Source: Prevotella sp. (GTDB lineage Bacteria > Bacteroidota > Bacteroidia > Bacteroidales > Bacteroidaceae). Taken from it: a stretch of DNA of 64,000 nt. Below are positions 12,817 to 64,000 of this stretch, piece by piece (the first letter of the stretch is position 1; every line of letters starts with the position of its first letter). The notes under the pieces are model-generated. The model saw only the letters and a list, made by a program, of their open reading frames with translations, did not search any database and was not told the origin of the DNA. A program made the translations under genes and the position numbers. The DNA is taken from NCBI GenBank assembly GCA_017623155.1, contig JAGAPR010000100.1, forward strand, positions 29,470 to 93,469, read 5' to 3'.

Positions 12817-13160
12817 CACTCATCGTATTTTAAAAATTTCAAAATTATTTTTCGGCGGGCGCAAATGAGCGAGTTTTGAGGCACTTTATGTAAGTGCTTT
12901 TATATGAGATGCTTATAAATATTTATGGCGATTTTCGTTGCCTCGAAAATCATCTTGTTTTGCAATTAGGCCGTAATTGCATTCCAATTACGGCCTAATT
13001 GGACGCTCGTTAGGCCGTAAACGCAATGCAATTACGGCTTCATTGCAGAGCAAAAAAGGGGAAAAAGGGGTGAAAGTCGGTGTGTGATTGTTTATAAATA
13101 TTAAATAATTGTCTTTTAAGTTAAATATTTTAAGTTAACAAAACCTACTTCGCGAAAAAA
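12817..13160 (-). repeat. Dispersed structured repeat, copy 1 (inverted)
   Basis: Minus-strand copy of a family with three other members at 22829-23220, 52067-52396 and 63690-64000. In element orientation it starts with the A/T box (13151 down to 13113) holding two direct copies of TTAACTTAAAA 3 bp apart. Next are a TTGTTTA/TAAACAA-like inverted repeat and two GGCCGTAA-type hairpins, the second at 12963-13001 with perfect 17-bp arms and a 5-nt loop. The right end (12817-12860) closely matches copy 3. It lies between divergent genes (ABC-F and a flippase). The remaining 12607-12816 and 13161-13340 of this 826-bp gap are A/T-rich with no gene seen. No coding capacity was seen within the repeat. 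Confidence 0.85.
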
Positions 13161-22828: not shown

Positions 22829-23220
22829 TCTTTTTAACACACCGACTTTGCCTTTAACTAAAAATATGTGAACGAAAAGTAAAAAGTCGATACAAAAGAT
22901 TTTCGCGAAGTAGGTTTTGTTAACTTAAAATATTTAACTTAAAAGGCAATTGTTTAATATTTGTAAACAATCATATGTCGGGTTTTTCTCTTTTTTGTAC
23001 ATTTTTGCCTTGCAATAAGGCCGTAATTGCACTGCGTTTACGGCCTAACGGGAGTGCAATTAGGCCGTAATTGCATTCCAATTACGGCCTAATTGGAAAA
23101 CAAGACGTTTTTTAATGCACTAAAAAATGGCGTAAATCGTTGTAAGTGTCTTGTGTATAGGCGTTTACGTTAAGTGCTCTATAATTCGCTTATTTGCGAG
23201 CTCGAGAATTTTTTTTAGAC
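22829..23220 (+). repeat. Dispersed structured repeat, copy 2
   Basis: The fullest plus-strand copy. It shares its left flank (22829-22906, from TTTTTAACAC through an AAAAATATGTGAACG segment) with copy 4. The A/T box is at 22907-22945 with TTAACTTAAAA at 22920-22930 and again at 22934-22944. A TTGTTTA/TAAACAA inverted repeat follows. Hairpin 1 pairs GGCCGTAA (23019-23026) with TTACGGCC (23038-23045). Hairpin 2 (23057-23095) has perfect 17-bp arms CAATTAGGCCGTAATTG around a CATTC loop. It sits between convergent aroQ and uvrB. The rest of this gap (23221-23367) is A/T-rich with nothing recognised. Confidence 0.88.
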
Positions 23221-23367
23221 GGAGGGCATTCTCAGCGATGTTAACATAATAATTTATGACAACTTATTTGTGTTTGTTTAACAAAATCCGTGGAAGATGT
23301 TAAATGCTAAATGTTAGAATTCTGTTTGTTGTAATTGTCGGTTTGCGGAATTAATCTCGCGGTGTGT

Positions 23368-35100: not shown

Positions 35101-35176
35101 TTGTAACGATGTTACAAGGCCGTTGTAACATCATTACAAGGCCGTTGTAAGATTGTTACAAGGCCGTTGTAACATC
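35101..35176. repeat. 22-bp tandem palindrome array A (3.5 units)
   Basis: Three full units (35101, 35123, 35145) and a half unit (35167) of a 22-bp repeat. Each unit is a palindrome TTGTAAY-N3-RTTACAA followed by the constant spacer GGCCG. It lies at the convergent junction of the MBOAT and phosphatase genes, and its last units overlap the phosphatase 3' end (stop at 35156-35158). The same unit occurs at 44940-45045. Each palindrome can form a 7-bp hairpin or bind a dimeric protein. Confidence 0.88.
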
Positions 35177-44939: not shown

Positions 44940-45045
44940 TTGTACTTGTGTTACAAGCGTCTTGTACTCGTATTACAAGCGTCTTGTAATCATGTTACAA
45001 GGCCTTTGTAATCGCATTACAAAGGCCTTGTACTCCGAGTACATG
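44940..45045. repeat. 22-bp tandem palindrome array B (4.5-5 units)
   Basis: Units begin at 44940, 44962, 44984, 45006 and 45028 (partial). Each is a palindrome of the type TTGTAMT-N3-RTTACAA followed by a 5-bp spacer (GCGTC twice, then GGCCT/AGGCC). The period and core are those of array A (35101-35176), although the spacers differ. It sits at a convergent junction (GH25 lysozyme and prmA) where no conventional terminator was found. Confidence 0.85.
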
Positions 45046-52066: not shown

Positions 52067-52396
52067 CAAAGTAGGTTTTGTTAACTTAAAATATTTAACT
52101 TAAAAGGTGGTTGTTTAATGTTTGTAAACAATTACACGCCGGATTTTTCTCTTTTACGTACATTTTTGCCTTGCAATAAGGCCGTAATTGCACTGCGTTT
52201 ACGGCCTAACGGGAGTGCAATTAGGCCGTAATTGCATTCCAATTACGGCCTAATTGCAAAACAATACGATTTTTGAGACACTTAAATATGGCTTGATTTT
52301 GCATATATGTCTTATATACAGATATTTACGTGGTATGCTTCAAAATTCGCGTATTTGCGGCCTCCGAAAAATAATTTTGAAATTTTTGAAATATGA
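52067..52396 (+). repeat. Dispersed structured repeat, copy 3
   Basis: Plus-strand copy. The A/T box (52071-52106) is nearly identical to copy 2. The inverted repeat TTGTTTA/TAAACAA is kept, followed by hairpin 1 and hairpin 2 (52218-52256, 17-bp arms, CATTC loop). The right end (52344-52396, with CCGAAAAATAATTTTGAA) matches copy 1. The left flank differs from copies 2 and 4. It lies between divergent corA and an unknown membrane gene. From 51880 to 52066 and from 52397 to 52600 the gap is A/T-rich with nothing recognised; TAAATTTG at 52607-52614 may be the -7 of the next gene. Confidence 0.87.
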
Positions 52397-63577: not shown

Positions 63578-63689
63578 ATAGTGAATACGTGTTGATGAAC
63601 GAAGAGAATAAAGAAGAGATGGTGTGTCAAAGGTAATCATAGCTCTTCGCTCTGCATTTCTCCTCCCCTTGAGGAGGTCGGGAGAGACT

Positions 63690-64000
63690 TTGTCTTTCTT
63701 TTTAACACTCCAATTTCCCGGTTAACTAAAAATATGTAAACGAAAAGTAAAAAATCGGCACAAAATATTTTCGTGAAGTAGGTTTTGTTAACTTAAAATA
63801 TTTAACTTAAAAGACGGTTGTTTAATATTTGTAAACAATCGAATGCCACTCTTTTTTCCTTTTCGTACATTTTTGCCTTGCAATAAGGCCGTAATTGCAC
63901 TGCATTTACGGCCTAACGGGAGTGCAATTAGGCCGTAATTGGAATGCAATTACGGCCTAATTGGAAAACAAGACCGTTTTTGAGGCAATGAAAAACGGTG
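63690..64000 (+). repeat. Dispersed structured repeat, copy 4 (cut by window edge)
   Basis: Plus-strand copy sharing its left flank (from CTTTTTAACACTCC) with copy 2. The A/T box is at 63775-63813 with the two TTAACTTAAAA repeats. Hairpin 1 and hairpin 2 (63925-63963, 17-bp arms) follow, and the loop of hairpin 2 is GAATG, the inverse of that in copies 2 and 3. The window ends before the right end. In the 423-bp gap, nothing else was recognised from 63578 to 63689 except a CTCCTCCCC-TTGAGGAGG inverted repeat near 63660-63680. Confidence 0.83.

What the first reader, a model, noticed from the sequence alone, without database searches (positions are those of the whole stretch)
22829..23220. Four-copy family of large structured intergenic repeats with a fixed architecture
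Copies at 12817-13160 (inverted), 22829-23220, 52067-52396 and 63690-64000 share, in order: an A/T box of about 39 bp that is almost invariant, a TTGTTTA/TAAACAA inverted repeat, GGCCGTAA hairpin 1, hairpin 2 with 17-bp arms, and an A/T-rich right end. Between blocks the sequence drifts, while the boxes and stems are kept, as expected if they are under selection or recently spread. The copies lie in divergent, convergent, divergent and one-sided gaps, so they are not tied to terminators or one promoter. No reading frame is conserved. It could be a non-autonomous mobile element, a repeated RNA gene or a chromosome-organising site. I know no named family with this layout.
Basis: seen in the sequence. 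Interest (0 to 1): 0.8.

Follow-up and report, generated by a model that had tools for sequence, protein, structure and literature searches.

The report
Evenly spaced palindrome arrays along chromosome
A Prevotella genome carries short palindrome arrays, many of them inside the reported repeat, about every 12-13 thousand bases, which suggests built-in markers that divide the chromosome into domains.

Summary
The repeat is real and larger than seen. Host: a Prevotella MAG. Its 29-bp core box occurs 58 times here and in 0 of 397 other Prevotella genomes. 52 of 58 boxes are perfect although copies differ by about a third elsewhere; the box-array distance is fixed. Similar 22-bp arrays with other arm sequences recur in the three other Prevotella species scanned.

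In this genome arrays of three types, one (D) sharing no arm sequence with the others, mark the chromosome quasi-regularly: 46 arrays in 652 kb, 43 gaps, median 12.3 kb, CV 0.39, none under 5 kb; no random placement was as even. A written prediction for contig C89 held.

Best reading: chromosome-organising nucleoprotein sites, perhaps supercoil-domain borders, derived from dispersed repeats. Spacing is shown; function is inferred. Of three other species, two were not regular and one weakly so. Not supported: RNA gene, recent MITE. Closest known: BIME/REP and BrickBuilt.

The parts
12817..13160 (-).
22834..23305 (+). Family A element, copy 2, from TTAACA to TGTTAAAT; between convergent genes
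22910..22938 (+). Invariant 29-bp box of copy 2
   Evidence: perfect in 52 of 58 copies; mean column identity 0.983
23005..23095 (+).
23182..23198 (+). Conserved tail motif TAATTCGCTTATTTGCG, 168 bp after the first unit in 47 of 52 copies measured
52067..52396 (+).
63702..64000 (+). Family A element, copy 4, cut by the contig end: box 63778-63806, array 63879-63966
35101..35173 (.). Type D array, 22-bp period, unit TTACAAGGCCGTTGTAA; no box; fills a family A gap
44940..45043 (.). Type D array, 22-bp period, units of the TTACAA...TTGTAA kind; no box; fills a family A gap

Best explanation
The repeats are members of a chromosome-wide set of protein-binding sites whose common core is an array of roughly 17-bp palindromes repeated every 22 bp (two helical turns). 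Several sequence types (A with the 29-bp box, B, D) carry such an array. In this genome they sit in non-coding gaps, preferentially between divergent genes, about once every 12-13 kb. SHOWN: the arrays and their 22-bp phase, the constraint on box and array, the fixed box-array distance, the quasi-regular spacing shared by types whose arrays differ in sequence, and consensus promoter boxes lying outside the element. INFERRED: a DNA-binding protein (or a gyrase/SMC-type complex) loads cooperatively on the phased array, in type A together with a second factor on the box, and forms an architectural complex such as a supercoil-diffusion barrier or nucleoid anchor. The sites probably arose as dispersed MITE-like repeats; copies at useful intervals were kept and crowded ones were lost or not tolerated.
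For: Even spacing: 46 arrays, 43 gaps, CV 0.39, none below 5 kb, 77% within 7-16.5 kb; 0 of 4,000 draws as even in each of three nulls, 0 of 10,000 with gene arrangement matched. Prediction written before fetching contig C89 held: 24 arrays, CV 0.40, no gap under 5 kb against 6.8 expected (the family A positions in C89 were already known). Ten type D arrays, with other arm sequences, keep at least 6.1 kb from every other array, P = 1e-4. 27 gaps on 16 further contigs, from partial lists and partly the same copies: none under 5 kb, median 12.4 kb. Constraint: box 0.983 against 0.736; mean pairwise distance 0.09 in the array against 0.32-0.38 elsewhere, 52 copies; 2 of 2 copies without an array have a damaged box against 4 of 56 with one, P = 0.009. 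Fixed distance 107-109 bp in 55 of 57. Divergent gaps: 27 of 42 family A copies (P = 0.003); 27 of 45 arrays of all types against 33% of intergenic length, P = 2e-4. Phase: at the chosen threshold lag-22 self-similarity in non-coding DNA gives 27, 16 and 6 places against 0-2 at each other lag 17-27.
Against: No binding protein, occupancy or topology data. Regular spacing was not found in G333 (CV 0.84, P = 0.20) or G113 (CV 0.81, P = 0.48) and only weakly in G001 (CV 0.45, P = 0.016), so it may be peculiar to this lineage. For family A alone the CV is not unusual (P = 0.14); only the missing short gaps and the 7-16 kb excess are. Neighbouring genes of arrays are not shared between species beyond 4 pairs. 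One weak 2.2-copy array at C89:98217 lies 1.5 kb from a family A array. One 2-unit copy was added to the spacing set by hand. Draft MAG, 83.8% complete, 4.2% contaminated.
Confidence: 0.5

Rival explanations
1. Selfish non-autonomous mobile elements whose mobilising enzyme recognises the palindrome array and avoids inserting near an existing array (target immunity). The spacing would then be a by-product and need not serve the host.
For: Sharp TIR-like ends; box absent from 397 other genomes of the genus; adk-obg gap of about 760 bp in our genome against 16-152 bp between matched ends in eight relatives read from the list; exclusion of close pairs.
Against: No young copies and selection on old ones; type D arrays differ in sequence yet obey the same exclusion; long gaps are also missing; no Y1 transposase found (other transposase families not searched); no target duplication detected beyond TTAA.
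Confidence: 0.2
2. Cis-regulatory elements (upstream activating sites or bidirectional promoters, as proposed for BrickBuilt) that co-regulate flanking genes.
For: Preference for divergent gaps; invariant box; fixed geometry.
Against: TAnnTTTG promoter boxes are rare inside and peak outside the element; neighbours are functionally mixed (my reading of the sequences); regulation does not explain even spacing.
Confidence: 0.1
3. Close direct repeats were removed by homologous deletion, leaving an exclusion zone by passive loss.
For: No pair of arrays under 6 kb in the 43 gaps or the 27 extra gaps.
Against: Types D and A/B share little sequence yet exclude each other; inverted copies should be exempt; does not explain missing long gaps nor box conservation.
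Confidence: 0.07
4. Assembly artefact: repeats break a short-read assembly, so closely spaced arrays were lost with small contigs.
For: Several contigs (such as C3, C8, C21, C23, C26, C39) begin or end in an array.
Against: Long contigs run through many arrays (24 in C89), and within them close pairs should assemble as well as distant ones; family A copies are at most 85% identical outside the box; the shortage of long gaps is not explained.
Confidence: 0.04
5. A multicopy non-coding RNA gene with a conserved promoter box and hairpins.
For: Folding stronger than shuffles on both strands (z -3.9 and -4.8); conserved box ahead of the palindromes.
Against: No Rfam match at gathering thresholds; 2 of 58 predicted pairs with a double change in 20 sequences; unit orientation flips; spacer sequence drifts; no consensus promoter at the box.
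Confidence: 0.03

Closest known systems
BrickBuilt MITE of Porphyromonas gingivalis (PMC4596501; abstract, sections 5 and 9 and passages seen)
   Same: Bacteroidales; intergenic; leader, short tandem repeats and tail; limited host range; variable truncation; suspected bidirectional regulatory effect.
   Different: 23-nt repeats, 1 to 22.8 of them, against a phased 22-bp palindrome array of about four; IS5-like TIRs GAGAC... not found here; 19 copies; no invariant box and no even spacing reported in the parts seen.
REP/BIME elements and their RAYT transposases (PMC2817692 abstract; PMC3733652, PMC6379681 and PMC6907758 passages)
   Same: Extragenic palindromes, repeated at regular distance in alternating orientation, species-specific sequence, candidate gyrase sites and supercoil barriers.
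   Different: No Y1/RAYT gene found here; arrays are 22-bp phased with an AGGCC core; long conserved box in family A; preference for divergent gaps; spaced evenly at 12-13 kb, whereas barrier placement in E. coli is described as random (PMC6907758 passages).
matS/MatP (PMC3330122, start of abstract in a search listing)
   Same: A short near-invariant site repeated many times that organises part of the chromosome.
   Different: matS is 13 bp, 23 copies in the 800-kb Ter domain; here about one array per 13 kb on every long contig read (C89, C42, window), several sequence types, no known protein.

Membership tests
BrickBuilt | 23-nt direct tandem repeat without spacers between leader and tail | tested here: not met
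   Period is 22 bp (spacings 21-23 by unit orientation) with palindromic units in alternating orientation
BrickBuilt | TIR GAGACCTTCGCA / TGAAAGGTCTC | tested here: not met
   Family A ends are TTAACAT / ATGTTAA in the 33 copies where both ends were located
BrickBuilt | Bidirectional promoter activity | not testable with these tools
   Only motif depletion inside the element was seen
REP/BIME with RAYT | Palindromic extragenic repeats in regular alternating arrangement | tested here: met
   Four units, order ><>< in 43 of 58 copies
REP/BIME with RAYT | A RAYT / Y1 transposase in the genome | tested here: not met
   PF01797 has no match in the 83.8%-complete genome; the control search rang in 5 of 14 genomes
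REP/BIME with RAYT | GTAG or CGTC tag at the foot of the palindrome | tested here: not met
   Units read CAATTAGGCCGTAATTG and the like without such a tag; the box contains GTAG but lies 107-109 bp away
REP/BIME with RAYT | Gyrase binding or supercoil-barrier activity | not testable with these tools
   needs experiments
MITE | Terminal inverted repeats | tested here: inconclusive
   Short TTAACAT/ATGTTAA ends in a subset of copies, variable left and right ends in others
MITE | Target-site duplication | tested here: inconclusive
   No flanking duplication in 33 copies (P = 0.56); a TTAA duplication cannot be told from the element's own end
MITE | Mobilised by a related transposase | not tested
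   Only PF01797 was searched
Structured RNA family | Known Rfam model | tested here: not met
   0 matches at gathering scores in the window
Structured RNA family | Covariation supporting a conserved fold | tested here: not met
   2 of 58 predicted pairs with a double change, covariation term -1.04 of -53.29 kcal/mol, 20 sequences
Chromosome-organising site (matS/parS-like) | Near-invariant site at many loci, not tied to one gene set | tested here: met
   52 of 58 boxes perfect; mixed neighbours
Chromosome-organising site (matS/parS-like) | A cognate binding protein | not testable with these tools
   none identified

The most novel reading that the evidence does not exclude
A bacterial chromosome carries a sequence-encoded ruler: phased 22-bp palindrome arrays of several different sequence types placed every 12-13 kb, which set the borders of supercoil or nucleoid domains. 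Domain barriers, described as randomly placed in E. coli, would here be fixed and readable from sequence, and each Prevotella lineage would have evolved its own array sequences.
Probability: 0.35. Interest if true: 0.93.

Novelty: new variant of a known kind. Interest (0 to 1): 0.85.

Why it matters
Bacterial chromosomes are thought to be divided into supercoiled domains of ten kilobases and more, but PMC6907758 (passages) says that the identities of the barriers remain to be established and that their placement looks random. Here is a candidate set that can be read from sequence, counted, deleted and moved, at an interval like the smallest reported domains (10-400 kb in those passages). It would let the size of a topological domain be altered by editing. 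It also points to a recurrent non-coding feature of Prevotella genomes that I did not find described in the searches made (open-licence papers only).

Tried and rejected
RAYT/REP mobilisation: no PF01797 match in the genome. Plasmid, phage and viral carriage: no match. Rfam: none at gathering scores. Exact 26-bp box in named genomes: none. Frequent recombination at the box: rejected, since left and right parts of copies co-vary (r = 0.68). Target-site duplications: none detected beyond a possible TTAA. Shared neighbours between species: 3 pairs for family A (87 neighbour proteins against 78 of four other species) and 1 for family B; about 3 would be expected for family A by my own rough estimate from a genome of some 2,300 genes. 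Exact empty sites: adk and obg lie close together in many Prevotella, but G103 and G104 have them on different contigs and G015 and G111 have another gene before obg, so no base-exact empty site was obtained. The lepA loci of named relatives had no synteny with ours. A first stem-pairing script mixed arrays with stray GGCC sites and was replaced: there the paired fraction exceeds the largest cross-species control for G113 (0.66 against 0.49), G004 (0.58, 0.52), G089 (0.73, 0.48) and own arrays (0.76, 0.43), but not for G001 (0.47, 0.48). TRF was too insensitive in other species; the palindrome-score scan separated lag 22 clearly only in the own genome; the lag-identity scan was then used. That scan gave two extra close calls in C89 and a CV of 0.54 there (P = 0.0014); one of the two looks like a simple repeat at 44.3 kb, the other is the weak array at 98.2 kb.

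Full report
What is there. The four copies exist and belong to a much larger family. The window is part of a metagenome-assembled genome: 2.74 Mb, 104 contigs, 83.8% complete, 4.2% contaminated. Its LepA is 90% identical to that of Prevotella sp. Tb.RUG.398, the best of the listed named relatives. The core box occurs 58 times in this genome (30 forward, 28 reverse) and in none of 397 other genomes of the genus. I call this family A.

Anatomy of family A. From left to right: a TTAACA-type end, a left A/T box, the 29-bp box GTAGGTTTTRTTAACTTAAAATATTTAAC, a small motif TTTAA-N-AACA, a spacer, four palindromic GGCC units 22 +/- 1 bp apart, a tail and a TGTTAAA-type end; ends vary between subfamilies. 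The unit order is ><>< in 43 of 58 copies and ><<< in 10 of 58, so the long hairpin is not what is kept; the phase is.

Constraint. In 58 aligned copies the box has mean column identity 0.983 and the rest 0.736; the best pair outside the box is 85% identical and the median pair 67%. In 52 copies compared by segment (six short, truncated or array-poor rows dropped: L022, L033, L042, L045, L150, L160), mean pairwise distance is 0.32 left of the box, 0.32 in the spacer, 0.09 in the array and 0.33-0.38 to the right. So copies are old, yet 52 of 58 boxes are perfect. Both copies without an array have a damaged box against 4 of 56 with one (P = 0.009). The distance from box to first unit is 108 bp in 46 of 57 and 107-109 in 55 of 57; from first unit to tail 168 bp in 47 of 52. 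Left and right halves of a copy co-vary (r = 0.68), so copies have not been reshuffled at the box. This fits selection on individual copies, not a young mobile burst.

Position. Of 45 copies, 42 have genes called on both sides: 27 divergent, 12 co-directional, 3 convergent, where 42% of intergenic length is divergent in a 304-kb sample (P = 0.003). Genes were called by a simple longest-ORF script. TAnnTTTG boxes (the Bacteroidetes -7 motif, recalled) are rare inside the element and peak outside it, pointing outwards, so elements stand between native promoters. Neighbours are varied and many look like housekeeping genes (my reading of the sequences).

The array is a wider thing. In the own genome a second family (B, 18 copies examined) shares array and tail but not the box (compared). 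A third type (D) has arrays with other arms, such as TTACAA...TTGTAA or TTACGTGGCCGTAGTAA; two lie in the window. Triplets AGGCC-N17-AGGCC-N17-AGGCC occur in 16 of 100 genomes of the genus, our own included, with different arms in different species; with N18 they occur in 1 of 100. The reversed-pattern control is not empty: 8 of 100 genomes with 24 hits in all, against 157 hits (70 of them our own) for the true pattern, and some of the true hits look like coding repeats. In a wider draw of 149 genomes of the order 2 match besides our own. A sequence model of box plus array gives weak matches (at most 55 bits against up to 182 in our genome) in 59 of 397 other genomes, covering mostly the array part. 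The cleanest test is independent of GGCC: lag-22 self-identity in non-coding DNA finds 27, 16 and 6 places in C89, C42 and the window and 39, 10 and 9 in stretches of G333, G001 and G113, against 0-6 at each other lag from 17 to 27 (threshold 30).

Even spacing. Family A gaps looked odd: 35 gaps, none below 6.6 kb where 8.4 below 6 kb were expected, and 21 between 6.6 and 16 kb where 9.2 were expected (P = 5e-5); their CV alone was not unusual (P = 0.14). In the window and contig C42, arrays of types B and D fell into long A-A gaps. I wrote down a prediction for contig C89 before fetching it, knowing only its family A positions; 24 arrays, gaps 6.1-26.7 kb, median 13.0 kb, CV 0.40 (0 of 10,000 random placements as even), no gap below 5 kb (6.8 expected); non-A arrays fell into all three long gaps that I had named. 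Tandem arrays of other periods from 17 to 26 bp number 3 in the three stretches together. Over C89, C42 and window (652 kb, 46 arrays, one 2-unit copy added by hand) 43 gaps have CV 0.39, median 12.3 kb, and 77% lie within 7-16.5 kb. Nulls that place arrays uniformly, in random non-coding gaps, or in such gaps weighted by length give a CV of about 0.9 and 11-13 gaps below 5 kb; none of 4,000 draws each is as even. A null matched for gene arrangement agrees (0 of 10,000; longest gap P = 0.0002). Ten type D arrays keep at least 6.1 kb from all others (P = 1e-4). Longest gaps are shorter than random: P = 0.002 for C89, 0.03 for C42, 0.09 for the window. Another 27 gaps on 16 further contigs, from partial lists and in part the copies, have none below 5 kb and a median of 12.4 kb. 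The ORF mask removed no array; one weak 2.2-copy array at C89:98217 lies 1.5 kb from a family A array. In the window arrays lie at 13.0, 23.0, 35.1, 45.0, 52.2 and 63.9 kb.

Limits. Outside this species regularity was not found in G333 (39 places, CV 0.84, P = 0.20) or G113 (9, CV 0.81, P = 0.48) and only weakly in G001 (10, CV 0.45, P = 0.016); 180-400 kb of each was read. Arrays of four other species share few neighbours with ours (4 pairs) and are not mainly in divergent gaps (13 of 39). The paired-arm test failed for G001. Contigs are unordered and several end in arrays.

Interpretation. I think the arrays are binding sites for an architectural complex, cooperative along the helix because units repeat every two turns, and that in this lineage they are held at intervals of 12-13 kb. 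PMC6907758 (passages) gives topological domains of 10-400 kb in E. coli, calls barrier placement random and barrier identity unsettled, and names BIMEs as possible barriers; PMC6379681 (passages) reports gyrase cutting in BIME-2 elements that does not depend on transcription. A role as supercoil barrier or anchor is therefore my leading mechanism; it is inferred. Origin from dispersed MITE-like repeats is likely: sharp ends, lineage-specific amplification and, at adk-obg, a gap of about 760 bp holding the element where eight relatives read from the list have 16-152 bp between matched ends.

Known relatives. BrickBuilt of P. gingivalis is closest in build and REP/BIME closest in likely action; neither fits when tested feature by feature (membership table). 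Paper searches for such repeats in Prevotella or Bacteroidetes returned nothing matching, but the library holds open-licence papers only and I saw listings.

Noticed in passing
Own genome, e.g. C42:169518-169692; also ending at the left end of family A in L009, L025, L026, L030: A separate palindromic repeat (CCTGCATTATTCATAC ... GTATGAATAATGCAGG, 175 bp in one complete pair) followed by TTAA in 9 of 13 places: looks like a TTAA-targeting MITE, which in several cases abuts the TTAA at the left end of family A.
   Followed up: partly
Flanks of 22-bp arrays in family B (L165), G004, G089, G001 and G113 loci: A recurring motif of the form CTGANNNTCANNNNGTTA lies near many arrays in several Prevotella species; function unknown (by eye, not counted).
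   Followed up: no
Right flank of many family A copies, e.g. window 23297-23330: Short degenerate repeats of GATGTTA / GATGTCA kind follow the right end of many copies.
   Followed up: no
Left flank of several copies (L015, L016, L019, L036, L150, L153) and window 63660-63690: A CTCCCCTTTGGGGAGG...GGG repeat stands just left of family A in several loci.
   Followed up: no
Ends of G000 contigs such as C3, C8, C21, C23, C26, C39: Several contigs of the MAG begin or end in a nearly identical array, so the assembly seems to have broken at these arrays.
   Followed up: no
L028; G103, G104, G015, G111: The adk-obg neighbourhood, tight in many Prevotella, is rearranged in G103, G104, G015 and G111, while our genome keeps the pair with the element between them.
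   Followed up: partly
G333:C2 1.0-1.4 Mb: 39 non-coding 22-bp arrays with units such as CAAAAGACGCCCTTTTG, about one per 10 kb but not evenly spaced.
   Followed up: partly
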